Program-made: the position numbers and the translations under genes
The notes under the pieces: model-generated
Database searches by the model: none
Seen by the model: only the letters and a program-made list of their open reading frames with translations
What the model was told of the DNA's origin: nothing
Part shown: positions 35,595 through 64,000 of the stretch, piece by piece
Layout: each line of letters begins with the position of its first letter
How positions within the stretch are numbered: the first letter of the stretch is position 1
From: Lycium barbarum
Lineage: Eukaryota > Streptophyta > Magnoliopsida > Solanales > Solanaceae
Direction: 5' to 3'
Length of the DNA: 64,000 nt
Assembly: GCF_019175385.1 (NCBI RefSeq)
Contig: NC_083339.1
Location: 46,157,330-46,221,329, forward strand

Positions 35595-35599
35595 AATAC
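35595..35599. repeat. Target-site duplication of D (AATAC), left copy
   Basis: AATAC at 35595-35599 recurs exactly at 44651-44655. Removing D and one copy joins the two halves of E RNase H (GLGCV on one side, MQHRK on the other). Confidence 0.93.
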
Positions 35600-35882: not shown

Positions 35883-35921
35883 GGTCATGTGATTATCACA
35901 TGACCTATAATTGGATATATA
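35883..35921 (+). promoter_or_regulatory. U3 perfect inverted repeat and TATA box of D
   Basis: Arms GGTCATGTGAT and ATCACATGACC (11 bp each, one-base centre) span 35883-35905, followed by GGATATATAC at 35913-35922. In the 3' LTR the palindrome is unchanged (about 41905-41927), whereas the TATA region reads GGACATATAC. Promoter role inferred from position. Confidence 0.6.
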
Positions 35922-36990: not shown

Positions 36991-37030
36991 AGGTATGTAA
37001 AGCTTACCTTTCCTTCTTTTGGCATGTCCT
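36991..37030 (+). other. LTR box 2 (AGGTATGTAAAGCTTACC...GGCATG)
   Basis: AGGTATGTAAAGCTTACC, a TTCCTTCTTTT run and GGCATGTCCT. Recognisable copies occur in the LTRs of C (16131), E (32291 and 48816), G (51830), H (7136 and 14366) and I (57906 and about 62041). The first part is a good plant 5' splice-site match (AG|GTATGT). Function unknown. Confidence 0.65.
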
Positions 37031-38025
37031 AGTTATACTAGGTCAAGATCGGACCCTCAGGGATAATTCAACTCTTGGAAATCCGAGTTCAAGTTTGGGC
37101 ACTATTCATTCAGCGCAATTGAAACCTATTCCTTACATTTGGTTGAAAGAATGTTCAAACCTTCATAACTTTTGCTATTGAGTCCGAATCTCTCCGAAAC
37201 TTTCGTAGATGGCTTTATGGAGCCTAAAGTCTGTGATTTGTGTCCGCCGCCTCGATTTGACTCAAGGTAGGCCCGCAAGCCCCGACGCTTCCCTTATTTG
37301 GTTTGTTTGGCTCATTTTCGTTCGATATGAAAAGTAATCATTTGCCTATAACTCAAAGGTCCGTTTGAAATTTCCTATATCGTTATTGAACGTTTTGCAC
37401 TATGAATGATGTGAGATTTTCGGAAAATGATCTGTGAATTGCTTTTCAAAGGTTTTGCAGTTTGAAACTTCGTAACTTCCATATATAAATTTTGATCGCC
37501 CTGACTCCTACCCCGAGCCTTCTGGCGTCGGTATATGCCTATATGTAATTATATGTCGAGTCTTGTAAATTACTTTTGATATGCATATGGTTTCTGCACT
37601 ACTCCGTTCGTGCCATTCGCTATGATTTCGTTCGTCGGTACCCGGGGCGACTTTGTGATCGTGCGCGCTATACCATATTCGGAAGTATGATGTGCTACGG
37701 TTTCCGAGGCCTCGCCATAGGGCCGGTTACCGTCTATGGAGTTATGATGTGATATGGCATTTGATATGTTCTGATGATGTGATATGTGTGTGATACGATT
37801 TTTCTGGAGACTGTACGGAGATTTGAAAAACTTCTGGAGTATGATGTGTTGTGGCACCAGCGTCGGGGGGTGACCACGTTCCTAAGCCCTATACATGATT
37901 TTTATTTGCATTTGTACATTTATCTTCCGTACAGGTTTGATTTGCTACTTTGATGTTGTGTTTGTTCCTTCTGACTCCAGTTATGATTGGGATTTCTGTA
38001 CATTCCGCTTTACATATTCAGTACT

Positions 38026-38085
38026 TCTCCCGTATTGACCCCCCTGTTCTTCGGGGGGCTGCGTTTCATGCCCGCAGGTACAGAA
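38026..38085 (+). other. LTR box 1 (C/G hairpin and CATGCCCGCAG|GTACAG)
   Basis: CGTATTGACCCCCC, loop TGTTCTT, CGGGGGGCTGCG, then TTTCATGCCCGCAGGTACAG. The C6/G6 arms form a hairpin and the tail resembles a 3' splice site. Copies with changes in both arms are in C, E, F, G, H and the 3' LTR of I. It is the most conserved LTR segment across families. Confidence 0.7.
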
Positions 38086-38627
38086 GCTCGTTTGGGTGAT
38101 CCTCCGGTTTAGGCTACATATTATGCTATTTTGGAGAGCTCCCCTTGATCCGGAGCTTAACTTTTGGTACATACCTTTTGCTGTGTGTGGATTCTGTACA
38201 TTTGTGGCTGTGTGGGTACGGCGAGGCCCTGTCCCGTCATATGTTCGTATGTTCTGTTTTGTTTTAGAGGCCTGTAGTCATATTTGTGGGTCGTGGGTCC
38301 GGTGTGTTCGTATGTGGTTCTGTTTTACGTTCTTAAGCGGCCCGTATGCTATTATGGCCAAGACGGCCCATAAGTTTGTACGTGTGTGTGTGTGCATTTG
38401 GGCGATGTATATTCCGCCACCTTTCTGATTTTGATATGACTGTCCTGCATGGGCGACCGCTTAAGATAAGTGTTTGTTCAATGCTTGTGTGACGTCTGCT
38501 ATTAGTTTTCAGTTCGAATAACGTATGTTAAGTCCGAATGAGTCTGAATATGATGATCTGGTTTGGGAGTCTGGTTGGGGTGCCTAAGTAGGGTGCCAGT
38601 CGCGGCCCACGGGGTTGGGTCGTGACA

Positions 38628-38913
38628 GAAGTGGTATCAGAGCGGTTAGTCCTCGGTATGTCTACAGGCCGTGTCTAGTAGAGTCTTGTTTATCGGTGTG
38701 TTGTTCACCACATCTATAAACAGGAGGCTACAGGACATCTAGGATGTTACCTTTCTTTGGATTCTTAGATCGTGCGATAAAGCTGTGTGATTAGGATGGT
38801 TCTCCCCTACGAATTGCTGTATCTACAGCGAGGCTCCAAAAGAGCAGAAGTGTCGGTATTTGGGGAAAATGTTTCTGACCCTCTTCCTGCAGGTGATCGT
38901 AGGTTGATAAAGA
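38628..38913 (+). other. Leader of D: PBS and leader hairpin
   Basis: PBS TGGTATCAGAGC at 38632-38643. The leader GTGTCTAGTAGAGTCTTG is followed by hairpin arms 38685-38693 and 38716-38724. The apical sequence reads GTTCAC (38703-38708), one change from the GTGCAC palindrome seen in C and H. The rest of the 286-nt leader leads to the ORF start at 38914. Confidence 0.8.
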
Positions 38914-39429
38914 ATGAAGAGGAGCGCTTCGGATGATGGGGATGGGGGTGCTAAGAAGGCCCCTAGGACGTCACCAGGACCGAGTAGGCAGATCCCCAGC
39001 TACTCGATTGAGACAGACCCTTCGGAGGATCCAGTGACAATTCCTCCAGAGTTTTTGATCCCCAGAGCAGAGGCTCCCAAGGAAGACAGTTATGATACCG
39101 ACCCCTCGGAGGACCCAGCGACGATACCTCCAGAGTTTCTTACTCCCAGGGAAGAGGATAGCCCCGATGCTGAGCCACTAGAGCATTCCTCTGGGATGCC
39201 GGAGGAGGAGGTTCCCGAGGGCGTGCCAGCAGCTCCTGTAGTGGAGCAGTATGTTAGACAGGCCTCCCCGGAGAGTGTCACGCCCTACCCCAGCCCTTTG
39301 TCCTGGCCGTCGGTGAACCAGGAATTGTCGGGCTACTTATACTCCTCCGATTCAGATGCAGGTAATAGTGGGGGCCAGACAGACGACGATGATGAGGGAC
39401 ACAGTTCCCACGGCAGCTCCCCAGGTTAG
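38914..39429 (+). CDS. Uncharacterised acidic 171-aa protein encoded by element D
   Basis: An intact ORF in the gag position of D. The start (MKRSASDDGDGGAKKAPR) is basic-acidic and could include a nuclear localisation signal (KR at 2-3, KKAPR at 14-18). Two near-identical 18-residue repeats follow: TDPSEDPVTIPPEFLIPR (34-51) and TDPSEDPATIPPEFLTPR (62-79). The rest is Pro/Glu/Ser-rich, with a very acidic tail (TDDDDEGHSS). No zinc knuckle, capsid, protease or membrane segment is visible, and most of it is probably disordered. I do not recognise the family. It could be a degenerated gag-like accessory protein or a chance ORF; the in-frame tandem repeat and lack of stops favour coding. Confidence 0.6.
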   Translation: MKRSASDDGDGGAKKAPRTSPGPSRQIPSYSIETDPSEDPVTIPPEFLIPRAEAPKEDSYDTDPSEDPATIPPEFLTPREEDSPDAEPLEHSSGMPEEEVPEGVPAAPVVEQYVRQASPESVTPYPSPLSWPSVNQELSGYLYSSDSDAGNSGGQTDDDDEGHSSHGSSPG

Positions 39430-39750
39430 ACCCGAGTTTGATCAGTCATGAGTACATAAGTTTCCTAGAATTTTCGATGTGTGTATGATATCTGTAAAAC
39501 GTTGTTCAACGACGACGGAAATTTAAAAGGATTAGAGACTTAGTGACCAAAGGTAAGGGAGACTGAGATGTCCCCACCGTCAGTGTGAATCTGGAAATCC
39601 CGGATGAAAGTAAACAGGAAAGTGCCTCCGATGCCGTTTGAGTTGGGCACGTGTGGTAAGTGTCGACGTCATTATAATTCTTATTTGAAGCTATCAGCCC
39701 CGTGTGACTGCGATACGCCATGATATGATATGTATGTATGTGTATATATG

Positions 39751-39840
39751 TTGGCCTTGTGAGGCCCGGTTGGTATTTCTGGTGTACAGGTTTTGGATAG
39801 TAAGAAAAACAGAGGAACCTCTGCCCAAATTTTTCCAGAA
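39751..39840 (+). other. Conserved 3' interior module, D copy
   Basis: GGCCTTGTGAGGC, TGGTATTTCTGGTGTACAGG, GATAGTAAGAAAAACAGAGGAA, CTCTGCCCAAATTTTTCC. It is collinear with the H copy (12607-12694, minus strand). The flanking 39430-39750 and 39841-40181 hold nothing I recognise. Confidence 0.6.
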
Positions 39841-40181
39841 ATATGGAAGTAAATATGTAGATTAAGTGCTAAAGTGTTCCGCGATACTTGTCGGAATTTA
39901 GTTTTCTTCTGTCGGTGGCCGGAGAACACCTTACGGTGACATTTATCAGACTCCACCGACTATTTGGAGGCGGAATTCGTAGGACGAAGATTTAAATCCG
40001 TGGGTTGTCCGTAATTGTGTGTATATGTGTATGAAAGTGAATGTTGAAGATTCAGAAAGGCAGCGCGGTAATTGTATGACTTAGCCCGGGGTGGGACTCG
40101 CTACGAGAATTCTCCGAAAAATTTGCTAAGACCCCGATCTGCCCTAAAATTTCGTGACAAAGGTCGTGCGGGGCAATCGAC

Positions 40182-40280
40182 GAAATTATATTATCCTTAA
40201 CGCGTCAAAATGCATGAAAGTTTCGAGGTTAAGCGTGCTCAAGCCAGAGCAATTCTGGGATGGGTGACCCCCTGGGAAGT
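40182..40280 (+). ncRNA. 5S-rRNA-derived module in D (not a functional 5S gene)
   Basis: The 99 nt align without gaps to plant 5S rRNA as I know it. Most conserved is GGTTAAGCGTGCTC (A-box region) and GGGATGGGTGACC..CTGGGAAGT (intermediate element and C box). The first half (40182-40227) is more diverged but stays in register. After GGGAAGT similarity ends apart from a short TGCA. It is in sense orientation to D. A matching block occurs in I (59432-59530). The internal Pol III promoter elements are largely kept, but transcription is not shown. Confidence 0.75.
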
Positions 40281-40914
40281 AATGCAAAGTTTCTCACAAG
40301 TGAAAGTATGATAAATATAAATGGAAATTTGGGGGTAACCAAAAGAAAAAAGGGAATGTGTGGAGTAATTAGTTCCCTTACAGGAGCCGCACAGACCGAC
40401 GCGGACTAAATGGGCAAAGATAGAAAGCGCAATACCGCTCGAAAATTGAGCAAGTTCGAATAACAGTCGGAGACGCTCGCCAATAAGATATTAGTAAATG
40501 TATCTGTATGTGTGTATGCGTGTGTGTATGATTTTTGTCTGGTTCCCATATGGATCAAGAGCCTAGTCCCGGCGACTAGTATTGTGATAGACGGAAGGTT
40601 TTACTAAACCGAATACCTGAAGCGAAGCGGGGACGACGATCCGAATGTTGTCAGGGGATAGAAAAGCCCCGGTTGCGTTATAATTTAGTCTGGTATGACG
40701 ATGTCTGAAAAAGAAAATGAGTATGAATGGTAGGGAGGATGAAAGATAAGAAGTGTGAATAAGCGGAACCTCTGAAGGAGCCGATGAGCGACACGCAAGA
40801 CGATTTGTATGATCACTTGGCAAACAAGTTTACAAATAAAGGGAAATTCTCATGAACCATTGGAGCCTTAATAGGAGCGATTTGATCCTAATTCGATATT
40901 CTATCTGTTGTACT

Positions 40915-41285
40915 TCTACACTCCCGATTCCGATAAGGCTCTGCCTAGTACGCCTCTGTATTTCTGAGCTCGATTATGTTCCCATCTGATGAATTTTTGT
41001 GCGTCTGATTCTGAATACGTTTCTGTCTGACACACCTCTGTGCGTCTGATTTTGATCACGCGTCTGTCTGATACATCTCCGTATGTCTGATACATTTCGG
41101 TCTGTCTGACTTCGATCACGACTCTGTATGATACAATTCTGTACGTCTGATTTTGATTTCGAATCTGTCTGATATCTCTCTGTACGTCTGACTCCGATCT
41201 CAGATTTGTCTGACATATTTCCGTACCTCTGATGTTGACTACGAATCCGTCCGATATGCTTATACGCGTCCGGCCCTAGCTCTGA
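40915..41285 (+). repeat. Degenerate tandem repeat in D interior
   Basis: About eight irregular units of the type TCTGTACGTCTGATTTTGAT / CGAATCTGTCTGATA, each roughly 40-50 bp. The minus-strand ORF across it (40974-41396) is repeat translation. Similar TTCTGTACGTTCTG units occur in the I 3' LTR (63150-63480). Confidence 0.7.
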
Positions 41286-41586
41286 ATCTGTTTGGCATAA
41301 AGTGCCTGGTATGAAGTATTGCGACGATGTGGTAAGAAACTCAGAAGTGTAACGAAAAATGATATTGATTATGATGTCTGGAAAGCGTTCGTCCATTACA
41401 AGAATATAGCGTATGGTTCGGTGCTTACGTGGGGTATGAGAAAATGTATTATGGAGGCATTTGAATCAGTGATGTGGGAAAACTTTACCACATAATGTTG
41501 GTGAACAAGCCACGTCGGAAAATTATCAAAGGACAACTACAAAGAGAACCCTTCCGAAGTAGTATGACTCCCCATGAGGTCAACTT

Positions 41587-41622
41587 AACATTCGAGGACG
41601 AATGTTCTTAAGGGGGGGAGAA
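41587..41622 (+). other. Hairpin and polypurine tract of D
   Basis: AACATTCG/CGAATGTT arms with AGGA loop (41587-41606), then AAGGGGGGGAG (41610-41620), then the 3' LTR at 41623. The PPT is the RNase H-resistant primer for plus-strand DNA. Confidence 0.88.
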
Positions 41623-44600
41623 TGTTATGTCCCGTGTTTTCGTATAATTGGAAATCGAGAAATAATTAAGACTTGTGTGTTATAAGGGAATATTTTGATT
41701 CTAGTTGATGTGACTATGTTGGTTATGACATCATTAATGTTAAGACATTGGGGAAGGCCGAGGGTAAATTTGGAATTTTGGAAATTAGTTTCGGGAATTA
41801 CAAAACGGGACTTTTAATGAATTGGGCCAAGAAAAATTAGAACAAATTGAGGCCCAAAGTCTTGAAGGGAGCCGGCCAAGGCTTGGCCCATGATCCATTT
41901 TGAGTGGTCATGTGATTATCACATGACCTATAATTGGACATATACTAAGTCCCCCTTTGGAGTTATCAAGAACTAAATCAAAACAAAAGAAAAAAATTGA
42001 AGAACACCCACCAAGGGCTCTCGGCCGAACCTAAGGAAAAGAAAAAAAAAATTCCCCAAGCCTTGTTGTGATCCAAAAATCTTAGTTTTCACATAGTTGT
42101 AAAGTAATCAAGACCCTCTTCAACGGGGTACAATTAGTTTGGCAAAAGGTGCGCGTTTGCGACAAGTCGGAAATTCAAGAAAAGGTAAGAATTTTGCCCC
42201 TCTAATGTTATGGAATTGGTGTGAATGTGTTAAGGATTGAGAATAGACGAGAATTCCGTCGTTTTGACGTGTGTGCAAAGCCGTGGGTATATGTATATTT
42301 GATGTCATGGCCGTGTGCCCTAGGAAGAAGAAAGAAATGTGAATTGATCTTGTTTGATTTGTTCAATGTGTCATTGTGACCTTTATGTCACAAATGAACG
42401 TTTAAAGAATTGAATTGGCGTTGGAAAAGGATTTTGGATCATTACGGGAAAGTGTATACCTTTTGTATATTTGCGCATGTCATTGTATATATATGATGTT
42501 AAACACTTTAAATATGACTTATGGTTGATGTTAATGAATTTGGAATGAAACAATGCGAGTTAGAATGTTCGCCGTAAGTTTTGATGTTTTAGATGAAATA
42601 TGGAAAGTAATGAACTTGGGGAAATTTTGTATATTGTTTGGAGTGTAATTGGGATGGGTTTGAATAATCTTGAATGGGTGAATGAATACAATAATGTGGG
42701 CGTAAGTTTGGAATTGTGATGTTTGAATGAAAGTTGTCAACTTGTGTAGTAAGGTAGAACTTTGAAGTTAGAATGATTTGATTGTGATTTATGTTGCTTG
42801 TGATGTTTGGGTTGTTGTTGTTGATGTATTTTTAGCCGAGCTAAGTCTCGGGGGTGTTAGATTTATAGGGGAAATGCTGCCGAAATTTCGGTAGCCAAGT
42901 ATAGCCCAAAGATTAAGATGTTAACTTTCATGAATAGTAACTGGTAAAAGTGACCATTTGCAGTTTTTTGGACGAAACGGGAATTGAGATTTGACGAGCG
43001 TAAGGCGCAATCCAGGTATGTAAAGCTTACCTTTCCTTCTTTTGGCATGTCCTAGTTATACTAGGTCAAGATCGGACCCTCGGGGATAATTCTGCTCTTG
43101 AAAATTCGAGTTCAAGTTTGGGCACTATTCATTCAGCGCAATTGAAACCTATTCCTTACATTTGGTTGAAAGAATGTTCAAACCTTCATAACTTTTGCTA
43201 TTGTGTCCGAATCTCTCCGAAACTTTCGTAGATGGCTTTATGGAGCCTAAAGTCTGTGATTTGTGTCCGCCGCCTCGATTTGACTCAAGGTGGGCCCGCC
43301 AGCCCCGACGCTTCCCTTATTTGGTTTGTTTGGCTCATTTTCGTTCGATATGAAAAGTAATCATTTACCTATGATTCAAAGGTCCGTTTGAAATTTCCTA
43401 TATCGTTATTGAACGTTTTGCACTATGAATGATGTGAGATTTTCGGAAAATGATCTGTGAATTGCTTTTCAAAGGTTTTGCAGTTTGAAACTTCGTAACT
43501 TCCATATATAAATTTTGATCGCCCTGACTCCTACCCCGAGCCTTCTGGCGTCGGTATATGCCTATATGTAATTATATGTCGAGTCTTGTAAATTACTTTT
43601 GATATGCATATGGTTTCTGCACTACTCCGTTCGTGCCATTCGCTATGATTTCGTTCGTCGGTACCCGGGCCGGCTTTGTGATCGTGCGCGCTATACCATA
43701 TTCGGAAGTATGATGTGTTACGGTTTCCGAGGCCTCACCATAGGGCCGGTTACCGTCTATGGAGTTATGATGTGATATGGCATTTGATATGTTCTGATGA
43801 TGTGATATGTGTGTGATACGATTTTTCTGGAGACTGTACGGAGATTTGAAAAACTTCTGGAGTATGATGTGTTGTGGCACCAGCGTCGGGGGGTGACCAC
43901 GTTCCTAAGCCCTATACATGATTTTTATTTGCATTTGTACATTTATCTTCCGTACAGGTTTGATTTGCTACTTTGATGTTGTGTTTGTTCCTTCTGACTC
44001 CAGTTATGATTGGGATTTCTGTACATTCCGCTTTACATACTCAGTACTTCTCCCGTACTGACCCCCCTGTTCTTCGGGGGGCTGCGTTTCATGCCCGCAG
44101 GTACAGAAGCTCGTTTGGGTGATCCTCCGGTTTAGGCTACCTATTCTGCTATTTTGGAGAGCTCCCTTTGATCCGGAGCTTAACTTTTGGTACATACCTT
44201 TTGCTGTGTGTGGATTCTGTACATTTATGGCTGTGTGGGTACGGCGGGGCCCTGTCCCGTCATATGTTCGTATGTTCTGTTTTATTTTAGAGGCCTGTAG
44301 TCATATTTGTGGGTCGTGGGTCCGGTGTGTTCGTATGTGGTTCTGTTTTACGTTCTTAAGCGGCCCGTATGCTATTATGGCCAAGACGGCCCATAAGTTT
44401 GTACGTGTGTGTGTGTGCATTTGGGCGATGTATATTCCGCCACCTTTCTGATTTTGATATGACTGTCCTGCACGGGCGACCGCTTAAGATAAGTGTTTGT
44501 TCAATGCTTGTGTGACGTCTACTATTAGTTTTCAGTTCGAATAACGTATGTTAAGTCCGAATGAGTCTGAATATGATGATCTGGTTTGGGAGTCTGTTTG

Positions 44601-44650
44601 GGGTGCCTAAGTAGGGTGCCAGTCGCGGCCCACGGGGTTGGGTCGTGACA
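41623..44650 (+). repeat. Element D 3' LTR
   Basis: TGTTATGTCCC at 41623 to GGGTCGTGACA at 44650, same length as the 5' LTR, with scattered substitutions and no large indel. It is followed by AATAC and the resumed RNase H of E. Confidence 0.95.
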
Positions 44651-44655
44651 AATAC

Positions 44656-44787
44656 ACATCCTAGTCCCACACCGGAGGCATCACAATACACGACATAGCC
44701 ATCCGGCCCTTCGGGAAGCGTTAACACTGGAGCTGAAGTCAATCTGTCTTTCAACTCTTGAAAACTACGCTCGCAAGCGTCATTCCA
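44656..44787 (-). pseudogene. RT end and RNase H start of E
   Basis: Continues in frame from the 533-codon stretch after a TAA at about 44788: FQELKDRLTSAPVLTLPEGPDGYVVYCDASGVGLGCV, including the first RNase H Asp. It is cut by D at 44651. The open frame listed through the LTR edge is artificial beyond this point. Confidence 0.85.
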
Positions 44788-46374
44788 TTAAAATTTCACT
44801 GACTTCTGGGTTAGCTTCATCAATGGAGCTGAAATAGATGAAAAGCCCTTTACGAATCTTCTATAATAGCCTGCTAAACCTAGAAAACTACGAACTTCCG
44901 TGGGCGTCGTAGTCCTTGGCCAAGTCTTCACAGCTTCAATCTTCTGAGTGTCGACACGAATGCCATCATCCGAAATAACATGGCCTAGAAATGTCACGGA
45001 ATTTAGCCAGAACTCGCACTTTGAAAATTTCGCATATAATTCCCGAGCTCGAAGAATGCCAAGACCAATTCTCAAATGGTCTGCATGCTCCGATTCTATG
45101 CGAGAATATACCAGAATATCATCAATAAACACTATCACAAACAAGTCCAAGAGTGGCCTGAATACATTTTTCATTAGATTCATGAACACTGCCGAAGTGT
45201 TAGTCAATCCAAATGACATCACTCTGAATTCATAGTGGCAATATCTCGTCCTGAAAGCTATTTTGGGAATGTCCGCTTCTCTAACTCTCACCTGATGATA
45301 ACCCGATCGCAAATATACTTTAGAAAACCATTTGGCACCTTGCAATTGATCGAATAAGTCATCAATCCTTGGAAGAGGATATTTGTTCTTCACCGTCACC
45401 TTGTTCAACTGCCTGTAATAGATACACATTCGTAGAGAACCGTCTTTCTTCCTTACGAACAATACCGGTGCTCCCCACGGTGATGGACTAGGCCTAATGA
45501 AACCATTCCCGAGTAAGTCTTTCAACTGCGCCTTTAGCTCTTTCAATTCTGCCGGAGCCATTCGATAAGGAGGAACAGAAATAGGCTGGGTGTCCGGCAA
45601 CACATCGATGGCAAAATCAATCTCTCTTTCTGGAGGAAGACCTGGAAGTTCGTCTGGAAACACATCTGGAAATTCATTCACTACCGGAACTGATTGAAAA
45701 GTTAGTGGCTCTGCCTCGGTATCATGAACTCGAACTAGATGGTAAATGTATCCCTTGGCTATCATCTTCTTTGCCTTAAGGTAGGAAATAAACCTACCTT
45801 TTGGAGAACCTGTATTACCCTTCCACTCAAGCACGGGCTCTCCCGGGAATTGAAATCGAACCATCTTTGTCCGGAAATCGACATTAGCATAGCATGAGGC
45901 CAACCAATCCATACCCATAATTACGTCAAAATCAAGCATTTCCAGCTCAATCAAATCAGCTTTTGTTCGGCGATGACATATGACAACTACATAATTTTTG
46001 TACACTTTCCTCGCTATTACCGGATCACCAACCGGAGTGAATACCTCAAAAGGTCTAATTGGCTCGGGTTTCACCCCAATACAGTCAGCAACATACGGAG
46101 TAACATAAGATAAGGTAGAACCCGGATCGATCAAAGCATATACAGCACGGGAAAATATAGTTAATGTACCTGTGACGACATCTGGGGAAGACTCAAGATC
46201 CTGTCGCCCCGCTAAAGCATATACGTGGGGCTGAACGGTACCTGAAGTAGATGCTCCCCCTCTGCCTCTACCTATACCTGCTGAAGTCTGAGGAATCTGT
46301 GCTCTCGGGCGTACCGAAGAAGAACCCGCTGCTGAACCTGTGGGCTGAGTCCCGGCTCTATCTCTTATCGAGGG
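44788..46374 (-). pseudogene. Protease and reverse transcriptase of E
   Basis: A 533-codon open stretch. Protease: [16 protein letters not shown] (catalytic Asp present) and [18 protein letters not shown]. Linker: [73 protein letters not shown] (usual Asp is Tyr), [12 protein letters not shown] (the motif A catalytic Asp is Tyr), [12 protein letters not shown] (double Asp intact), [15 protein letters not shown]. Two Asp-to-Tyr changes in an otherwise open frame imply RT inactivation after a long period under constraint. The frame ends at a TAA in the RT-RNase H linker. Confidence 0.9.
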
Positions 46375-46825
46375 ACAATCTCTCATCATATGGCCGACTT
46401 GACCGCAGGCATAGCAGGCGTCCGAACCTGTCCGGAATGTAGTCTACCGCACTGGCTGCATTGCGGTACTGGGTGTCCCCTCTAACTAAAATCCCCTGTG
46501 GATTGAAAATCCGAGTCCCTCAAACTCTAGCCCTGTCCTGACTTGAAAGAATGGTCAAACCTCCTATCTTGAAATCTGGAAGGCGCACTAGTCGCTGACT
46601 GGCCTGAATGCCTAGAATGTGTCTGTCTCGGTCCCCCTCTATACTCACTGCTGGCTCCCATAGATCTAGCCCTCTTGCCTTGTCTCCTGTCAGTATCATG
46701 ATCACTCCTTTTTGGTGACTATCGTCCCTCTAAATTCTGAGCATGGGCTTGTATAAGGGAAATGTCCATCCCGTCCTGCAATGAGGCTGTCAAGCAATCT
46801 TTGAATAAATGTGGTCCCAAACCAC
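46375..46825 (-). pseudogene. gag: gag C-terminal region and zinc knuckle of E
   Basis: The zinc knuckle [14 protein letters not shown] (CX2CX4HX4C) is at 46375-46416 on the minus strand and in frame with the protease. Upstream (46417-46825) gag similarity (SGLGPHLFKDCL, LQDGMDI) is present but spread over frames with stops. Confidence 0.8.
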
Positions 46826-47512
46826 TCAAAACCTGTGCACTCGATCCCCCATGTCGGCCACCATAGCCGGGGCATACCTGGCCAAAGAATTAAATTGCAA
46901 GCTATATTCCCGAGCACTCATGCTTCCTTGCTTTAGATTCAAGAACCTGTCCGCTCTAGCTCGGCGGACCTCGGGTGGCAAATAATGACGAATAAAAGCA
47001 TCCACAAATTCTTGCCAAACCGAAGGAGGCGCGTTCTCTGCCCTTGATGCTACCCAGTTGTTGTACCATAATACCGCCACATCGCGGAGTCTATAAGAAG
47101 CCAACTCCACGGATTCGGTCTCGGAGGAATGAATAATCTTTATGGTCCTCAACATCTCATCAATGAAGTTTTGTGGATCTTCATCCGGTTTCGACCCAAA
47201 GAACTCCAGAGGATTTAAGGTCATAAAATCACGAGCTCTCGTGCTAGCTGAACGATCACTCGGGCTCGCATTCCGTCGTTGTGCCTGGACAACAACTAAT
47301 TGGGTCAATAAATGTATGGCCTCAGTCACTTGTTGACCCGAAGCATCCACTGGAGGAATCGGAGCCGAGGCTCCTCCTTGCTCTTCTACATTGGGCGGGG
47401 CCTCATTTTGTGATTCGCCCTCTTCTACATTCACCAAAGGATCTCTTTCCGCCCGTCTTTTTGTCGTAACATTGCCCTTCTGGGCAGCTGTAGCGCTTCC
47501 CATTGGCGGCAT
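46826..47512 (-). pseudogene. gag: gag (capsid) of E
   Basis: Starts MPPMGSATAAQKG at 47512 (the homologous start to C at 17550; the open frame extends upstream into the leader but that part is not conserved). Capsid domain: FMTLNPLEFFGSKPDEDPQNFIDEM, ESVELASYRLRDVAVLWY, FVDAFIRHYLPPEVRRARADRF, FNSLARYAPAMVADMGDRVHRF. A TGA at 46826 follows, caused by a one-base frame change; gag similarity continues in the next frame. It would form the virus-like particle with leader-bearing RNA. Confidence 0.87.
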
Positions 47513-47716
47513 TCTGAAACCACAGCACACTATTAGGGAGGATAAAATCTTACGCATGGCTCTATCGCACGATTTCATAAGAAGAAGGATGGTCATTTTT
47601 CCTAAATGCCCTGTAGCCTCTTGTTTATTAGCATGGCGCGCAACACACCATAAACAAGACTCTACTAGACACGGCTCGTAGACACTTCCTAGGACGAACT
47701 GCTCTGATACCACTTT
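47513..47716 (-). other. Leader of E: PBS and leader hairpin
   Basis: The PBS on the minus strand, TGGTATCAGAGC, is at 47701-47712, four bases from the LTR. The hairpin arms CTTGTTTAT (47650-47658, minus) and ATAAACAAG (47620-47628, minus) are perfectly complementary over 9 bp. The apical part contains GCGCGC (47636-47641). This leader is copied in structure by C, D, H and I. Confidence 0.85.
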
Positions 47717-50053
47717 TGTCACGACCCAGCTAGGGGCCGCGACGGGTACCCGGGGCTAGCCACCGAGCACCACTCACTCTACCACTCATCTTACTCACTT
47801 AATGCCCTTTTATCAACTTCATACACGAATTATAGGGAAAACATATTTTAGATAGAAATATAAATGCTTTATATACATTTGTCTCTCGGCCATCAAAAAT
47901 AATATATACATATAATAACATCTTATGAGACCATCTAACCCACACTGCGTATCTATGAGCCTCTACTGACAAACTGTATATATATATAGACGGAACAAGA
48001 CTCCGTCGTGCCCAAAATATGCATATATACCAAAAGGAGAATCATAGGCACCTCCGAACAATGGAGTGCTCTCAATCAGCTAACAGCTACTAAGAATCTG
48101 GATCAAGCTCACCTCCATGTCTACCTGTGGGCATGAACACAGCGTCCAAAGAAAATGGACGTCAGTACGAATATTGTACTGAGTATGAGAGGCATAAACA
48201 ACGAAGGAAGACAACAATAATATAATGAGAACATCAATATGAAACATCTGGATCTGAATGACAATCATAAGAGAAGTAATGCATGCTGTCTTACTCATAG
48301 TCATTATCATATCATATATGCATAATATGTAAGCTGCCCGTCCAAAATGGAATGGTGTGATAATCAATAATAATAGCCCGCATCCAGGCCTCCCGCGTCC
48401 GGGGTACCATCTCATGCCGCACACTAGTGGTGTCTGCACATGCCAAATGGTCATGGTGTATCCGTATAGCTGCCCGCCTTAGCGGTGACTGCCCGACCAA
48501 CTAAGCGCGGTGTAATATTATCATGACATGCTCATATTATTATAGTACATACGTAAAGCTCAAGATCAACTATACTTTATCGGGGTGACGTAAGGTCGTG
48601 ATCCCCCGATTTCATTATGGAGCAATTACTGACATTCTGCCTCACCTTGAAGGAATTAGCACATAAGGTGAGTGTGGGTAATCAACAACATCTTCATCAT
48701 TATGGCATCTCATTATTATATCTCTTATGTTATATAGACATTTATAGATATAGGCTTTTTAGCTTTCTTCGGAATACATGAACTCCTGAAGAGGAAAGGA
48801 ATTTATGCTATAGGATTCATGCCATTAGAAGGAAGGGACTAGCCTCACATACCTTTTTCGTTTAAGCAATTTAGCGTTTGCTTATTCTCCTTCAATGTCA
48901 CGCCTCTACCTTCAAAAAGAGGATTCGTACGATCATTAGTTAACCAACTATAAGAACGCACTAGTATTTCTAGAGAAAATTGGGCAGCACTTCCTTTGTT
49001 TATACTACTTTTCCCGTATTCCATATCAACTCCCAATCACCCACAATAACAATCTTAATATAGCAAATCACAATAATCATTCATATACAATGGCCATGAT
49101 CCACACTTTCTCTTCATTTTTCCCCACATTTATGGTTTTGGGTTCGCTATCATATTTTCCCATGTACCACACTTATCTCATGGTCTACATGTCATTTATA
49201 ACATATTCATACTCACAACACACTAACATTCATGATTCAATTAAACTACCACTCACTATGACACTATTCACTCTTGAAAGACCCATTTGCTATGTTCTTC
49301 TACAATTCGGGTATCTTAACCTTCCAATACCTTAAACAACACAAAATGGTCATGAAACTTACTTTGGATGATGGTGGAATAAAAATAGAGTGGAATTCCT
49401 TCCTCTTTCACCGAACCCTACTTCACCTCCTTTGAGATTTCTTGGTTTGGACGAACTTCACTTGAGTTTCATACACTTGGCTTCATGGATTTAATGTTGT
49501 TGATCTTGATGTTCCTTTGATTCTCTTGGATGAAGTGTTTGGAGAACATTTTAGAGTGTTCTTTAATTGTCGAAATGAGAAATGAAATAAAATGAGGTTA
49601 GGGTCCCTTTTTATTACTCAAAATCTGATTTTTTAATGAACAACAGTCGGGGTGTACAGTGGTCGTAAACCACAATTTACGGACCGTATACTGGTTTATG
49701 GTCCGTCCTCCACGGTCGTATTTAAGCATATCAGGAACAGAAAGGTTGCCTGGAGATCATGGCAGTTTACGACTTAGTTTACGGGCCGTATTTTGATTTA
49801 CGGTCCGTATTCTGGGTCGTATTTTACAATTTCAACTTTTAACAGAAATTCGAAATTTTTGAAATGTTGAAGGACGATGGCACTTTACGGTCCGTAAATC
49901 ACTTTACGAACACTGGGCTGAAATAAAATTTCGCAACTTTCTTATTTCCAAAAATTCATAGTTAGTCATTCCCTACTTAGTAAAACATCGCACACTCATA
50001 CCCTTCATCGGTCTATTCATTGTAGGCTCGCGGAAAATTTCTGAGGTGTGACA
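47717..50053 (-). repeat. Element E 5' LTR
   Basis: TGTCACGACCC at 47717 to GGTGTGACA at 50053 (plus strand). Box 1 about 48115-48170, box 2 about 48816-48860, palindrome array 49676-49908 with one TTTACGGNCCGTAAA unit lost. Followed by GGGAC. Confidence 0.93.
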
Positions 50054-56138: not shown

Positions 56139-56536
56139 TGTTATAGCCCGTATATTGTACGTTTGGAAATTCTAAAGTCGTCGTGGAAAGTTAAGAACGG
56201 GACTATTTTTAAAAAGGGTTGGAATGTGCAAGTGGTTATAAAAATTAGTTATGAATATTATTGCATGGAAATATTGAGAAAGGTTAAGGGTAAAAATGAA
56301 AATTCACAAAATCGCTTGTGGTAATATTGAGAAAAATCGAGGGGCAAAATGGGAATTTCACAAAAGTCTTGAAAGTTTATAAAATTTCCATGTTGGTTGT
56401 GTGGCATAAGTATATGCCCACATTGCTTTGGGAGCTAAAGTGTACCAAGGAAAACATTTGGTCTTCTTTGACCAAATAAAGCAATTCAAAAAAAAAAAAT
56501 AAAAAAAAAATCAAGAAAATGGAAGAGTTTTCTAGA

Positions 56537-56584
56537 GAGGGGCATGTGCCCCTCACATGCTTGAAAATATATGTATATATATAA
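56537..56584 (+). promoter_or_regulatory. U3 inverted repeat and TATA box of I
   Basis: Arms GAGGGGCA/TGCCCCTC with a TG centre (56537-56554), then TATATATAAAT at about 56574-56584. The same pair is in the 3' LTR (about 60671-60718). Confidence 0.6.
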
Positions 56585-58065
56585 ATGAGTCTTCTTTTAA
56601 TTCAAGACAAGAGGAGGAGAACAAAACAAAACAAAAAAAAGATGAAGAGAATGGAAAGGTGAGGGTTCGGCCCTAGCCATGGAAAATTGGCTCCATTAAA
56701 TCTTGCCCCAAAAATTATTTTCTTGTGGTATTCCTACTAATTCAAGGGCCCTCTACAACGTGGTGTAATTGTTTCGAAAGATAGGCCATCCGTTTCATTG
56801 TTTTCCGCACTTTGGTTGAGTAAAGAAGTTGGGAGGCAAAGGTAAGAATTAATCCTCTTTTATATGTTATAAATGGTTTGTGTATGTTGTGGTATGTGGA
56901 AATGGAAGAGAAGCATGAAAACATGCATGGTTGGAAGCTTGGCCGTGTGTGTACATGTTGTGTAGGAAAAAAAATGGAATAATTTTTATATGGTAATTTG
57001 ATTGTTGTTGATAAGTATCCTATGATGAAAATGAGAACTTAATGATTCAAGTTGGAGTTGAGATTAGTATGTGTAGCCGTGTGTGTGTGTGGTGTGTAGA
57101 AATGATGAATTAAGTGTATTTAGCATGATTATGTGTTGTTGTGATGTGCAAAAAAATGGATGAAAATTATGGAATGTGTGTGTTGAAGGGCTGGCCGAAA
57201 ATGGACTGTTTTGCATGTCAAAGAATGAACTAATTTTATTTAGTATGTTTGGGTTGTTGTGTTGAGGATTATGTGATGTAAATGAGAGCTTAATGATCTA
57301 AGATGGTGTCGTAATTGTTGCGGGCTGTTTTTGGAAGCCAATTTGAATCAAAGGTAGTTTCTTGTAATCATGATAATAATGTTGTAAAAGTGTGGTTTGT
57401 TGGTGTAGATTGTGAATTTTGAAGAAAGAAATGTGTTGTGATGGTTCCTATGGAAGTTGGAAGATTTCAGGTTCCATGGTGCATTGTTGGGTTGTTTGAA
57501 TATTTTGTCATTTGTCCGAGGCGTTCTTGAATCTTGTTTAAATAGTTTTGATTAGTACTTGAATGCATGAAGATGGATGTTGGTTTGATTGCATGCGGTT
57601 GATTTGAATGAAAGTGGAATGTCGTCGAATTGTATAGAAAAGGGTCACTAATGTTAGAATGTGTTTTGAACCTCTTATTGATGTTGTAGCTTGGTTGTTG
57701 GTTGGGTTGTTGTTGATTTGGCCGAGCCATATTCTCGGGGTTGGTATATTTACAGGGGAGATGCTGCCGAAATTCCGGCAGAATATAAGCAAACGTGTTT
57801 GAAAGGTTAAGGCAAGTATGTGACAACGAATCTAATGAATGGATGAATCCTTTTGAATGTAGATTGACAAGTTGGATGAACAAGCGTAACTAGTTGGTCG
57901 CGGCACAGGTATGTAAGGCTTACCCTTTCTTTCTTTGGCATGTCCTAGAGCCAAGTAAGGTATAATGTGATATGCTGCCTTGGGGTAACTCTGTTCTGTG
58001 ATTCTGAGTCTGATTATGATTCTAATTCACTTCTTGACCTGAGTTTGTGATCCTAGTTCATCCCT

Positions 58066-58290
58066 TGATATAAGTATTTTGATATAAGTATTTTGGTACA
58101 AGTATTCTGATATACGTATTTTGATATAAGTATTCTGATATAAGTATTTTGATATAAGTGTCTTGATATAAGCATTTTGATATCAGTCTTCTGATATAAG
58201 TGTTTCGATATGAGTATTTTGATATAAGTATTCTGATGTAAGTATGCTGATATAAATATTCCGATATGAGTATCCTGATATGAGAATTCC
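58066..58290 (+). repeat. Tandem TGATATAAGTATTT repeat in I LTR
   Basis: About fifteen degenerate units of 14-15 bp. The 3' LTR has the matching array at about 62200-62430. The minus-strand ORF here is repeat translation. Confidence 0.85.
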
Positions 58291-58923
58291 GAAATCAGTA
58301 TCCTGGTAAGAGCATTCTGATATGTTTATTCTGGTGCGAGAACTTCTGTAAGATTTAATGTCCCTAACTTCCGTATACAATCTCGGATCGCTCTGAAATG
58401 TTCGAAGAGGTTTCTGTATCAAGACGTCCATAATTTTCTTATACGTAAGTATGGTTCCAAAATCTCTATTTGATCTGATTCGTAAGGACATCCGAAGGTG
58501 CCTGATATGACTATGACTCTGATTCTCCGAAAAAGGCTTCTGAAACGCTTATAAAGCGCTTTGTCCTTCAAACGCTCGTAACTTCCTCATACTACGCCGG
58601 ATTGACCTGAAATCTGTTCCGAGCCTCCAGGTATCGGTAAGTACACTGGTCTATTGAGTCTTGATGTCTATGCATGTGGTTTCTCATGACTCTGCTCGTG
58701 CATGCCTCAATGTATCTTTCGCTGCGTCCCGGGCCAGGTTCTGTTATCGTGCGCATTCCCCTGCATTGTTCACCGCGTCCCTCATATGTATTTTACTATG
58801 TATTTTATCTGATTTGATTTAAAAGTTTGACGTAACTTTATGTGCAGCAACAGTCTGAGGGTTCGCTCGGCCCTAAGTAAGGGTCGGGTGCCCATCACAC
58901 CCTAGTAAGGTCGGGGTGTGACA

Positions 58924-59100
58924 AAGTGGTATCAAAGCAGGTCGGTCTAAGGGTTGTCTGCAAATTCGTGTCCGGTAGAGTCCTGTTTATGGTGTGAAGC
59001 GCGCCATATTTATAAGCATGAGGCTACGGGGCATCTAGGGATTGTTGACCTTCTTTCTGTCATAGATCGTGCGATAGAGCCAAGTCATAGGACATGAGAT
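58924..59100 (+). other. Leader of I: PBS and leader hairpin
   Basis: PBS TGGTATCAAAGC (58927-58938), one mismatch from consensus. GTCCGGTAGAGTCCTG precedes a hairpin in which TATGG (58988-58992) pairs with CCATA (59004-59008). The apical sequence AAGCGCGCC contains GCGCGC (58999-59004). Although the sequence has drifted from C/D/E/H, the stem is maintained. Confidence 0.75.
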
Positions 59101-59427: not shown

Positions 59428-59530
59428 GGACGTGATTATATCAGCGTTAAGGCGCCAAATTCCACCAAGGTTTTGAGGTTAAGTGTGCTCAGGTGGGAGC
59501 AATTTTAGGATGGGTGACCCCCTGGGAAGT
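59428..59530 (+). ncRNA. 5S-rRNA-derived module in I (not a functional 5S gene)
   Basis: Ungapped similarity to plant 5S rRNA from its 5' end (GGACGTGATTATATCAGC against GGATGCGATCATACCAGC) through GTTAAGTGTGCTC (A-box region) to TAGGATGGGTGACCCCCTGGGAAGT (C box). The last roughly 20 nt of 5S are missing. It is clearer than the D copy in the first half. Sense orientation, in the 3' half of the interior as in D. Confidence 0.8.
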
Positions 59531-60245: not shown

Positions 60246-60281
60246 AACATTCGAGGACGAATGTTCTAAAGGGGGGGAGGA
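60246..60281 (+). other. Hairpin and polypurine tract of I
   Basis: AACATTCG/CGAATGTT arms with AGGA loop (60246-60265), then AAAGGGGGGGAGG up to the 3' LTR at 60282. Confidence 0.88.
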
Positions 60282-63200
60282 TGTTATACGTTTGGAAATT
60301 CTAAAGTCGTCGTGGAAAGTTAAGAACGGGACTATTTTTAAAAAGGGTTGGAATGTGCAAGTGGTTATAAAAATTAGTTATGAATATTATTGCATGGAAA
60401 TATTGAGAAAGGTTAAGGGTAAAAATGAAAATTCACAAAATGGCTTGTGGTAATATTGTGAAAAATCGAGGGGCAAAATGGGAATTTCACAAAAGTGTTG
60501 AAAGTTTATAAAATTTCCATGTTGGTTGTGTGGCATAAGTATATGCCCACATTGCTTTGGGGGCTAAAGTGTACCAAGGAAAATATTTGGTCTTCTTTGA
60601 CCAAATAAAGCAATTCAAAAAAAAAAAAAAAAAGATAGAAAAATCAAGAAAATGGAAGAGTTTTCTAGAGAGGGGCATGTGCCCCTCACATGCTTGAAAA
60701 TATATGTATATATATAAATGAGTCTTCTTTTAATTCAACACAAGAGGAGGAAAACAAAACAAAAAAACAAAAGATGAAGAGAATGGAAAGGTGAGGGTTC
60801 GGCCCTAGCCATGGAAAATTGGCTCCATGAAATCTTGCCCCAAAAATTATTTTCTTGTGCTTTTCCTACTAATTCAAGGGCGCTCTACAACGTGGTGTAA
60901 TTGTTTCGGAAGATAGGCCATCCATTTCATTGTTTTCCGCACTTTGGTTGAGTAAAGAAGTTGGGAGGCAAAGGTAAGAATTAATCCTCTTTTATATGTT
61001 ATAAATGGTTTGCGTATGTTGTGGTATGTGGAAATGGAAGAGAAGCATGAAAACATGCATGGTTGGAAGCTTGGCCGTGTGTGTACATGTTGTGTAGGAA
61101 AAAAAATGGAATAATTTTTATATGGTAATTTGATTGTTGTTGATAAGTATCCTATGATGAAAATGAGAACTTAATGATTCAAGTTGGAGTTGAGATTAGT
61201 GTGTGTAGCCGTGTGTGTGTGTGTGGTGTGTAGAAATGATGAATTAAGTGTATTTAGCATGATTATGTGTTGTTTTGATGTGCAAAAAAATGGATGAAAA
61301 TTATGGAATGTGTGTGTTGAAGGGCTGGCCGAAAATGGACTGTTTTGCATGTCAAAGAATGAACTAATTTTATTTAGTATGTTTGGGTTGTTGTGTTGAG
61401 GATTATGTGATGTAAATGAGAGCTTAATGATCTAAGATGGTGTCGTAATTGTTGCGGGCTGTTTTTGGAAGCCAATTTGAATCAAAGGTAGTTTCTTGTA
61501 ATCATGATAATAATGTTGTAAAAGTGTGGTTTGTTGGTGTAGATTGTGAATTTTGAAGAAAGAAATGTGTTGTGATGGTTCCTATGGAAGTTGGAAGATT
61601 TCGGGTTCTATGGTGCATTGTTGGGTTGTTTGAATATTTTGTGATTTGTCCGTGGCGTTCTTGAATCTTGTTTAAATAGTTTTGATTAGTACTTGAATGC
61701 ATGAAGATGGATGTTGGTTTGATTGCATGCGGTTGATTTGAATGAAAGTGGAATGTCGTCGAATTGTATAGAAAAGGGTCACTAATGTTAGAATGTGTTT
61801 TGAACCTCTTATTGATGTTGTAGCTTGGTTGTTGGTTGGGTTGTTGTTGAATTGGGCCGAGCCATATTCTCGGGACTGGTATATTTACAGGGGAGATGCT
61901 GCCGAAATTCCGGCAGAATATAAGCAAACGTGTTTGAAAGGTTAAGGCAAGTATGTGACAACGAATCTAATGAATGGATGAATCCTTTTGAATGTAGATT
62001 GACAAGTTGGATGAACAAGCGTAACTAGTTGGTCGCGGCACAGGTATGTAAGGCTTACCCTTTCTTTCTTTGGCATGTCCTAGAGCCAAGTAAGATATAA
62101 CGTGATATGCTGCCTTGGGGTAACTCTGTTCTATGATTCTGAGTCTGAATATGATTCTAATTCACTTCTTGACCTGAGTTTGTGATCCTAGTTCATCCCT
62201 TGTTATAAGTATTTTGATATAAGTATTTTGGTACAAGTATTCTGATATACGTATTTTGATATAAGTATTCTGATATAAGTATTTTGATATAAGTGTATTG
62301 ATATAAGCATTTTGATATCAGTCTTCTGATATAAGTGTTTCGATATGAGTATTTTGATATAAGTATTCTGATGTAAGTATGCTGATATAAGTATTCCGAT
62401 ATGAGTATCCTGATATGAGAATTCCGAAATCAGTATCCTGGTAAGAGCATTCTGATATGTTTATTCTGGTGCGAGAACTTCTGTAAGAATTAATGTCCCT
62501 AACTTCCGTATACGATCTCGGATCGCTCTGAAATGTTCGAAGAGGTTTTTGTATCAAGACGTCCATAATTTTCTTATACGTAAGTATGGTTCCAAAATCT
62601 CTCTTTGATCTGATTCGTAAGGACATCCGAAGGTGCCTGATATGACTATGACTCTGATTCTCCGAAAAAGGCTTCTGAAACGCTTATAAAGCGCTCTGTT
62701 CTTCAAACGCTCGTAACTTCCTCATACTACGCCGGATTGACCTGAAATCTGTTCCGAGCCTCCAGGTATCGGTAAGTACACTGGTCTGTTGAGTCTTGAT
62801 GTCTTTGCATGTGGTTTCTCACGACTCTGCTCGTGCATGACTCAATGTATATTTCACTGCGTCTCAGGCCAGGTTCTGTTATCGTGCGCATTCCCCTGCA
62901 TTGTTCACCGCGTCCCTCATAGGCGGGCCGGGCTCTGTTATATGGTATGATGATATAATGATATGGGGTGGTGGCCAGGATGGCATATGATCTGTCTGTT
63001 CACCGCGTCCCGTACTAGAGGGCCGGGCTCTGTTACCGCATCCCTCACTGGAGGGTCGGGTTCTGATATATGCATACATGATACATGAAATTAATATATG
63101 ATGATTCTGTTTACCGCGTCCCTTATCACAGGGCCGGGTTCTGTTATACGCATATGTGACATACGATTCTGAGTATTCTGTATGTTCTGACATCATCTGA

Positions 63201-64000
63201 GTGTTCTGTATGTTCTGACATCCTCTGAGTATTCTGTATGTTCTGTATTCCGTCCGGTATATGACATCATCTGTACGTTCTGTATTCCGTCCGATATATG
63301 ACATCATCTGAGTAATCCGTACGTTATGTATTCCGTCCGATATATGACATCATCTGAGTAATCTGTACGTTCTGTATTCCGTCCGATATATGACATCATC
63401 TGATTAATCCGTACGTTCTGTATATCGTCCGATATATGACATCATCTGAGTATTCAGTACGTTCTGTACTATGTCTGACGTATGACCTTATCTGTGCGTT
63501 CTGTACGTGCCACACTCCTTCTGACATCTGGTGTCGGTATGTGCGATCTGTGTCTGGAAAGTAATTATGTCGGCATTCTGTATGCTCTGCATGATTTTGT
63601 TATGCTTTGTGTTATTTGTACGGTCTTTATGATCTGTATTGGTCGGTATGGTCTGTGTCGGTCTATATGGTCGGTATTGGTCTGTATGAACTATGTCTGA
63701 GAAGCAAGTAATTTGGTAATTTGGATAATATGCTCACCCTGGTACTGTTTGTTTCAATTATGGTTCTGCTTTCTGTATTCTATGTCTTACATACTCAGTG
63801 CATATTCCGTACTGACCCCCGGTTCTTTGGGGGCTGTGTTTCATGCCGCGCAGGTACTCCCAGACGAGATGAGGACACTATAGAAGATATTTCAGCAGTG
63901 GTGGCGAACTCCATTTGCTCCTGGAGGACTGCCAAGTCAGGGTATGGTATATGTGTTATGGTTTCTGTATGGTATTAGAGACTTTGCAGATAGCGTCGTG
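60282..64000 (+). repeat. Element I 3' LTR (continues beyond window)
   Basis: It lacks 14 bp near its start relative to the 5' LTR, then is nearly identical to it up to 62920. From 62921 it has sequence absent from the 5' LTR: four CCGCGTCCC...GGGCCGGGTTCTG units (62908-63140), a long TTCTGTATTCCGTCCGATATATGACATCATC tandem array (about 63150-63480), and box 1 (63806-63858). This is probably the complete form of the LTR. Confidence 0.88.
63150..63480 (+). repeat. Tandem repeat with GTTCTGTATTCCGTCCGA units
   Basis: About seven units of 45-50 bp containing TGACATCATCTGAGTA and TTCTGTATTCCGTCCGATATA. It lies between box 2 and box 1, the usual place for tandem repeats in these LTRs. Confidence 0.85.

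What the first reader, a model, noticed from the sequence alone, without database searches (positions are those of the whole stretch)
59428..59530. 5S-rRNA-derived block inside the interior of a non-autonomous LTR element (I)
About 100 nt align with plant 5S rRNA without gaps, from the 5' end through the A-box, intermediate element and C-box regions. Cassandra elements carry 5S sequence in their LTRs; here it lies in the interior, 3' of the leader, in an element with no coding capacity. A retained internal Pol III promoter could give a second transcript or affect packaging or nuclear position.
Basis: partly seen in the sequence, partly recalled or inferred. Interest (0 to 1): 0.87.

Follow-up and report, generated by a model that had tools for sequence, protein, structure and literature searches.

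The report
Conserved 5S promoter inside LTR retrotransposons
A piece of the 5S ribosomal RNA gene sits inside a large clan of protein-poor plant jumping elements, and the part of it that is the gene's own switch has changed far less than its surroundings, which suggests that the elements use it.

Summary
Window 59428-59530 aligns without gaps to nt 1-103 of this plant's own 5S gene (75/103); with a recalled plant 5S the score is 43 against a maximum of 14 in 1000 shuffles. It lies 3' of the PBS leader in an LTR element without gag or pol. The plant is a Lycium.

It is not one odd copy. A second, distant element in the window (II, 35600-44650) carries it at 40178-40280, and 4 of 12 sampled 10-kb stretches carry it in further lineages, one with gag and no pol seen. 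A core pattern absent from the 5S gene occurs 5448 times in the genome, 0 for the reversed control.

Across lineages I, II and III conservation concentrates in 5S nt 49-103, the internal control region: 44/55 invariant columns against 130/340 in the flanks and 26/48 in nt 1-48. 5S pairing is not clearly kept above chance.

Best reading: one old capture of 5S, kept as a DNA-level TFIIIA/Pol III type control region in non-autonomous Tekay-derived elements. Transcription is unproven; early T-runs and changed intermediate elements speak against a strong promoter. It is not Cassandra, whose 5S lies in the LTR.

The parts
56139..58923 (+). Element I, 5' LTR (TGTTATAGCC...GGTGTGACA)
   Evidence: Direct repeat 56152-58786 / 60281-62921 at 97.8%; ends read
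58927..58938 (+). Element I, PBS-like site TGGTATCAAAGC (tRNA-Met type; the name is recalled)
   Evidence: leader alignable to II and to coding Tekay-type leaders
59428..59530 (+). Element I, 5S-derived block, 5S nt 1-103
   Evidence: 75/103 ungapped to own 5S gene; shuffle test
59476..59530 (+). Element I, conserved internal control region, 5S nt 49-103 (A box 59477-59491, IE 59494-59499, C box 59507-59524; box limits recalled)
   Evidence: best-conserved 55-nt window of the aligned region
60268..60281 (+). Element I, polypurine tract before the next LTR
   Evidence: shared GAGGACGAATGTTC..AAGGGGGGGAG end with II
60282..64000 (+). Element I, second LTR, running past the window end; another interior with the block follows, so the locus is a tandem LTR-interior-LTR-interior
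   Evidence: LTR end at L019:235; block L019:789
35600..38627 (+). Element II, 5' LTR
   Evidence: 98.5% repeat 35600-38627 / 41623-44650; 5-bp target duplication AATAC
38632..38643 (+). Element II, PBS TGGTATCAGAGC
38914..39429 (+). Element II, 171-aa frame without Pfam match; 13 of 25 relatives found bear a source name, all Lycium
40178..40280 (+). Element II, 5S-derived block, 5S nt 1-103
41610..41622 (+). Element II, polypurine tract
41623..44650 (+). Element II, 3' LTR
31194..50053 (-). Coding element of autonomous (Tekay) type (LTRs 31194-33544 and 47717-50053; gag, protease, RT, RNase H, integrase, chromodomain pieces), interrupted by element II; no 5S block in its interior. Whether this copy is intact was not assessed
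   Evidence: integrase core and Chromo just under Pfam's cut-off; best 5S score in its interior 12, at shuffle level

Best explanation
An ancestor of these elements, a non-autonomous derivative of a Tekay-type chromovirus, captured nt 1-103 of a 5S rRNA gene or transcript between the leader (or gag) and the PPT. The descendants now form several diverged families in Lycium. [quoted passage not shown] The most likely reason is that this DNA is still bound by TFIIIA and serves as a type 1 Pol III control region, either giving a short interior transcript or keeping the element accessible. It cannot be the promoter of the genomic RNA, because a transcript starting there would lack the 5' LTR end and the PBS. 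Shown: origin, position, spread, stronger conservation of nt 49-103 between lineages. Inferred: TFIIIA binding, Pol III recruitment, benefit to the element.
For: Single origin: six of six lineages share GAGCAATT where the gene has GAGTAGTA, and the flanks are homologous. Conservation: I, II, III invariant in 44/55 columns of nt 49-103, 26/48 of nt 1-48, 130/340 of flanks (Fisher 7e-9 against flanks, 0.006 against nt 1-48); the best 55-nt window starts at 59476/59477, that is nt 49/50. A region 15/16 and C region 23/24 between I and II while flanks are about 55% alike. Within II (21 copies) minority letters: 8/1155 in nt 49-103, 67/1411 upstream, 138/3741 downstream. C box of the window copy of I is 18/18 the gene's. 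Spread: 5448 core matches. Recent activity: LTR pairs 98.5% (II), 98.2% (L033), 98.7% (L042, part of the LTR). RNA pairs kept are not above a null in nine sequences (p 0.077-0.78), and AGTA, the loop E motif (recalled), is replaced in six of six lineages, which favours DNA over RNA.
Against: No transcription or binding data. The intermediate element region is less conserved (10/15 I to II). In family I (16 copies) the block is no less variable than the upstream flank (15/103 against 13/128 variable columns), and in III (13 copies) the C region is no less variable than the downstream flank (3/312 against 6/624 letters). T-runs of 4-5 at +43 to +47 in I, III and L042 could stop Pol III early. 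15 of 21 II copies carry an extra C just 3' of GGATGGGTGACC. Family III has a G to T change in the C box in 13 of 13 copies. One of five block-family interiors in the sampled stretches (L037) lost the block with about 2.25 kb of interior including the PPT. nt 1-48 is itself somewhat more conserved than the flanks (p 0.04). One lineage, L033, has more double pair changes than the null (p 0.006). The II copies are top hits of a query that includes the block. Columns are not fully independent, so the p-values are optimistic.
Confidence: 0.5

Rival explanations
1. The block works in the element's RNA: a partial 5S mimic that binds RPL5 or TFIIIA, or a packaging or export signal for Tekay-type Gag, and its DNA-level promoter positions are incidental.
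For: It is part of any genomic RNA and lies in sense orientation in six of six lineages. 18 of 19 tested 5S pairs can still form in the window copy, and in L033 double pair changes exceed the null (p 0.006). Precedents: the 5S-mimic intron in plant TFIIIA pre-mRNA bound by RPL5, and viroid RNA bound by TFIIIA-7ZF and RPL5 (PMC6164485, passages). gag-bearing L033 keeps the block.
Against: Pairs are not kept beyond what the substitution types give (p 0.077-0.78, nine sequences), and double changes exceed the null in only one of nine at p below 0.05. The 3' strands of helices I and V lie beyond nt 103 and are absent; AGTA of loop E is gone in six of six lineages.
Confidence: 0.2
2. The block is a passenger: a relic of 5S capture without present function, spread because the elements are numerous and young.
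For: Families I and III show no clear constraint within the family. The block is lost in L037. The gene's upstream sequence is not recognisable by eye.
Against: Between diverged lineages nt 49-103 is far more conserved than the flanks and more than the other half of the same block; in II polymorphism is about five to seven times lower there than in the flanks. Shared non-gene letters speak against re-capture or conversion by the 5S array as the cause.
Confidence: 0.25
3. It is a Cassandra or TRIMp3-like element, or a Cassandra or SINE3 inserted into an LTR element.
For: By eye the block fits the published Cassandra 5S search motif RGTTAAGYRHGY-(15-25)-RRRATRGGTRACY (PMC7215508, passages), and a relaxed form of it hits both window blocks; the PBS type is the same.
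Against: 5S lies 501 nt (I) and 1546 nt (II) 3' of the PBS, not in the LTR; LTRs are 2.8-3.0 kb, element II about 9 kb. The sequence on both sides of the block is homologous across lineages. SINE ends or a target duplication around the block were not searched for.
Confidence: 0.03

Closest known systems
Cassandra (TRIM with 5S in the LTR)
   Same: 5S-derived sequence with A box, IE and C box conserved in a non-autonomous LTR element; same PBS; tandem LTR-interior arrays (PMC7215508 and PMC10853983, passages)
   Different: There the 5S lies in both LTRs and starts the genomic RNA; here it is interior, after the PBS, in elements with LTRs of 2.8-3 kb that share leader and PPT with Tekay-type elements
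Ajax / TRIMp3 (nemertean TRIMs)
   Same: Partial 5S covering the promoter boxes (PMC10886601, abstract and passages)
   Different: In the LTR, elements under 1 kb, animals
SINE3
   Same: 5S-derived internal promoter (PMC10886601, passages)
   Different: SINE3 is a non-LTR element with the 5S-derived part at its head
TR-GAG and LARD non-autonomous LTR elements of plants
   Same: LTRs, PBS, PPT, gag only (L033) or no coding capacity (I) (TR-GAG papers seen as search listing only; LARD definition recalled)
   Different: No 5S-derived control region in them turned up in the searches made; no such paper was read
5S-mimic intron of plant TFIIIA
   Same: 5S-like stretch inside a longer Pol II transcript (PMC6164485, passages)
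   Different: Works through RNA bound by RPL5; here the 5S fold is not clearly kept above chance

Membership tests
Cassandra | 5S-derived sequence inside both LTRs | tested here: not met
   Only 2 C-box matches (up to 3 mismatches) in the window, both interior; in I 501 nt after the PBS start, in II 1546 nt
Cassandra | 5S motif with A box, spacer 15-25, C box | tested here: met
   Relaxed motif search hits both window blocks (motif from PMC7215508)
Cassandra | TRIM size, short LTRs | tested here: not met
   LTRs 2785 nt (I) and 3028 nt (II)
SINE3 | No LTRs, 5S-derived head | tested here: not met
   LTRs, PBS and PPT present
Non-autonomous LTR element (LARD or TR-GAG type) | LTRs, PBS, PPT, target duplication, no pol | tested here: met
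   II: AATAC duplication; L033: CAAAG duplication, gag the only frame over 100 aa in 2600 nt after the PBS, with Retrotrans_gag and zf-CCHC; I: no long frame, its outer target duplication not determined
Mobilised by a Tekay-type chromovirus | Shares leader and PPT end with a coding Tekay-type element | tested here: inconclusive
   Leader 77-78% to the coding element at 47716(-); gag, RT, integrase, chromodomain pieces by Pfam. PPT ends compared only between I and II and the sampled elements. That it is the helper is not shown; the lineage name is recalled
Type 1 Pol III promoter | A box, IE, C box with 5S spacing | tested here: inconclusive
   A 11-13/15, IE 4-5/6, C 15-18/18 to the gene over nine sequences, L033 read across an indel; 3 of 16 family-I copies vary at nt 63 and 2 at nt 57
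Type 1 Pol III promoter | TFIIIA binding and Pol III transcription | not testable with these tools
   No ChIP or small-RNA data at hand
5S rRNA mimic RNA | 5S secondary structure kept by compensation | tested here: inconclusive
   Pairs kept not above null in nine sequences; double changes above null in one of nine (L033); AGTA of loop E lost in six of six lineages

The most novel reading that the evidence does not exclude
A large clan of Tekay-derived non-autonomous elements carries a selected, TFIIIA-dependent control region in its interior, so that thousands of elements recruit Pol III factors in addition to being transcribed by Pol II from their LTRs. This would be a two-polymerase retrotransposon and a genome-wide sink for TFIIIA.
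Probability: 0.3. Interest if true: 0.85.

Novelty: new variant of a known kind. Interest (0 to 1): 0.62.

Why it matters
Known 5S-bearing LTR elements use the 5S promoter in their LTR to start the genomic RNA. An interior copy cannot do that, yet its control region is the best-conserved stretch of the aligned part of the interior. If it binds TFIIIA, it separates the benefit of a Pol III control region from genomic RNA synthesis and makes that benefit testable. In practice, thousands of 5S-like blocks could inflate 5S copy counts and confuse 5S small-RNA and FISH work in Lycium.

Tried and rejected
RNA-structure explanation: first looked strong (18 of 19 pairs possible in the window copy), but a null with the same substitution types gives 11.1 of 14 pairs on average against 13 observed, p 0.11; double changes exceed the null only in L033 (p 0.006). 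Protein-coding explanation: the frame through the C box is open in II-type copies as it is in the 5S gene itself, but short (27-45 aa) and shifted by the extra C in 15 of 21 II copies; the motif search picked a wrong place in I, L003, L028 and L036, so those four rows were not used. Search for the block's reading frame in other plants: one weak hit (E 0.67), uninformative. Scan of viral contigs for the core: none. Other plant genomes could not be searched, so spread outside Lycium is unknown. Alignment A1 has a wrong L033 coordinate and was not used. A second motif hit in L020 (4753) lies in the LTR and on reading has no 5S sequence around it. In one search the block position given for L033 (1027) is a false match of the relaxed motif inside gag; the real one is 5620-5621 on the reversed locus. 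A genome-wide count of intact A boxes was tried and not answered.

Full report
The source. The window is C3:46157330-46221329 of a 1.67-Gb assembly. A protein search with the 171-aa frame of element II gave 25 proteins; 13 bear a source name and all 13 are from Lycium barbarum or L. ferocissimum. I therefore take the plant to be a Lycium; no record names it.

The observation. Block I (59428-59530) aligns to the plant's own 5S gene (L010, from an array on C6 found) without a gap from nt 1 to nt 103, 75/103 identical, and the match stops there. A recalled plant 5S scores 43 against a shuffle maximum of 14 in 1000. Rfam's 5S model gives 27.4 bits, under its gathering score. So the block is real, 5S-derived and easily missed by default scans.

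The element. LTRs of 2785 nt (56139-58923) and a second LTR from 60282 enclose 1358 nt with a PBS-like site and a PPT; the longest listed frame overlapping 58900-60300 is 98 aa, on the other strand. The second LTR runs past the window and is followed by another interior with a block, so the locus is a tandem array. Similar close pairs occur among the 40 hits.

A second family. Element II (35600-44650, LTRs 98.5% identical, target duplication AATAC) carries the block at 40178-40280. It lies inside a coding chromovirus of Tekay type (name recalled) on the minus strand, which has gag, protease, RT, RNase H, integrase and chromodomain pieces by Pfam, the last two partly just under Pfam's cut-off, and no block: the best 5S score in its interior is 12, at shuffle level. 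Interiors I and II share the leader (73%, 172 columns), the region around the block (64%, 437 columns) and the PPT end (79%, 95 columns); other matches between them are short and weak. The leader is also shared with the coding element (77-78%), so movement by Tekay-type proteins is likely but not shown.

More lineages. Twelve 10-kb stretches at fixed positions, all between 49 and 77 Mb on their chromosomes, were fetched (L031-L042). Four of 12 hold a block: L033, L036, L041 and L042; each is followed by the shared PPT end, and L033, L036 and L042 have the PBS upstream, while L041 starts 481 nt before its block. By flank similarity L033, L041 and L042 stand nearer to II and L036 (III) nearer to I. 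L033 has a 491-aa Gag (Retrotrans_gag, zf-CCHC) and no other frame over 100 aa in the 2600 nt after the PBS; L042 has a broken gag. A fifth stretch, L037, has a II-type leader and frame but lost the rest of the interior, block and PPT included. A search for leader homologues in the window and the 12 stretches gave 14 places (hits starting beyond query base 20 were dropped): 5 precede a block (I, II, L033, L036, L042) and 9 do not within the 0.1-3 kb available; of the 9, three are followed by gag (window 47716 minus, L039, L040:2339), one is L037, three are cut short by the locus end (L032, L037:77 and the L040 one just named), and window 13328 minus, window 17349 plus and L040:5349 have neither a block nor a long frame in 3 kb.

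Copy number. The pattern GAGCAATTYYRKGATGGGTGACCCC, which the 5S gene does not match, has 5448 exact places, 0 for the reversed control. Two of the four sampled blocks fit it (sequences), so the total is probably of order ten thousand; this is an inference from a small mid-chromosome sample. Genome searches with I, II and III each scored 40 hits, all covering the block, out of 5153, 3551 and 3484 first-look candidates. These are top hits, so they do not measure how often the block is lost.

One origin. Six of six lineages carry GAGCAATT where the gene has GAGTAGTA, and the likeness to the gene ends after GGGAAGT, nt 103, in each. That argues for a single capture and against repeated conversion by the 5S array.

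What is conserved. In an alignment of six lineages, columns invariant in I, II and III are 44/55 in nt 49-103, 26/48 in nt 1-48, and 46/100, 34/100 and 50/140 in the flanks. The best 55-nt window of the aligned stretch begins at 59476 or 59477, nt 49 or 50. In plant 5S genes the internal control region runs from the A box at about nt 50 to the C box at about nt 97 (limits recalled; the C-box motif AGGATGGGTG is quoted in PMC10853983). Between I and II: A region 15/16, C region 23/24, IE region 10/15, flanks about 55%. Within II, 20 of the 39 other hits were fetched; with the window copy the minority letters are 0/315 in the IE region, 1/504 in the C region, 7/336 in the A region, 17/1008 in nt 1-48, against 67/1411 and 138/3741 in the flanks; a rotation control reaches the nt 49-103 value in 13 of 351 shifts. 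Families I (16 copies) and III (13 copies; 12 of 39 other hits fetched) do not show this within the family. So the constraint is clear between lineages and in II and not visible within I and III.

RNA or DNA. Eighteen of nineteen 5S pairs can form in the window copy and 14-18 in the eight others. With the same substitution types placed at random, as many pairs are kept with p 0.077-0.78 over nine sequences; for double changes p is 0.059-0.54 in eight and 0.006 in L033. AGTA of loop E (motif recalled) is gone in six of six lineages, and helices I and V have no 3' strand within nt 1-103. This favours a DNA-level role without excluding an RNA one.

Is it a working Pol III promoter? For: A box and C box. 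Against: no upstream elements recognisable by eye, T-runs of 4-5 at +43 to +47 in I, III and L042, a changed IE, an extra C in 15 of 21 II copies. The window copy is itself off its family: at nt 57 and nt 79 it has T where 14 of 16 copies have C, which also gives it a second run of four T at +76. A transcript from here would lack the 5' LTR end and the PBS and cannot template the element, unlike Cassandra. Hence a binding-site or chromatin role is at least as likely as a useful transcript.

Literature. Searches for 5S in interiors or in non-autonomous, Tekay, Solanaceae or Lycium elements listed Cassandra, Helenus and Ajax, where the 5S or tRNA piece is in the LTR; no title or abstract start that was listed shows an interior case. 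Only open-licence papers are held and most were seen as listings. Passages were read in PMC10886601, PMC10853983, PMC7215508, PMC7076952, PMC12222929, PMC4524691 and PMC6164485. A survey of Solanum repeats notes that nine unclassified potato repeat families match ncRNAs including 5S rRNA (PMC4524691), which might be relatives; not followed up.

Verdict. It is a new variant of the known theme of small-RNA-gene promoters in retroelements, with a position that makes its benefit a real question.

Noticed in passing
window 60282-64000 and L019; also L022, L024 and close pairs among the hits on C3, C7, C8: Tandem arrays LTR-interior-LTR-interior sharing one LTR; on C1 three interiors are spaced 4603 nt apart, twice.
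   Followed up: partly
window 38914-39429: 171-aa acidic frame in element II with no Pfam match; 25 relatives in the protein search, the 13 named ones from Lycium; possibly a lineage-specific protein of a non-autonomous element.
   Followed up: partly
L033 (reverse strand), interior 3737-6561: Gag-bearing element without pol whose frame ends, judged by eye, just inside the protease start; L042's broken gag ends at the same place, suggesting an old gag-only ancestor.
   Followed up: partly
G000 C11:94009074, 94039588, 94070791: Three full 5S genes (107-115 bits) about 30 kb apart, away from the C6 array.
   Followed up: no
window 1-4671 and 17903-22561: Near-identical direct repeat of about 4.7 kb (99.5%) carrying a frame that looks RT-like by eye.
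   Followed up: no
window 59663-59680: Second conserved stretch downstream of the block (around AAAGATAGAAAGCGCA, 16/18 between I and II), not conserved in III.
   Followed up: partly
window 60282-64000 into L019:235: The second LTR of element I is about 1.2 kb longer than the first; extra tandem repeats lie at 62890-63508.
   Followed up: no
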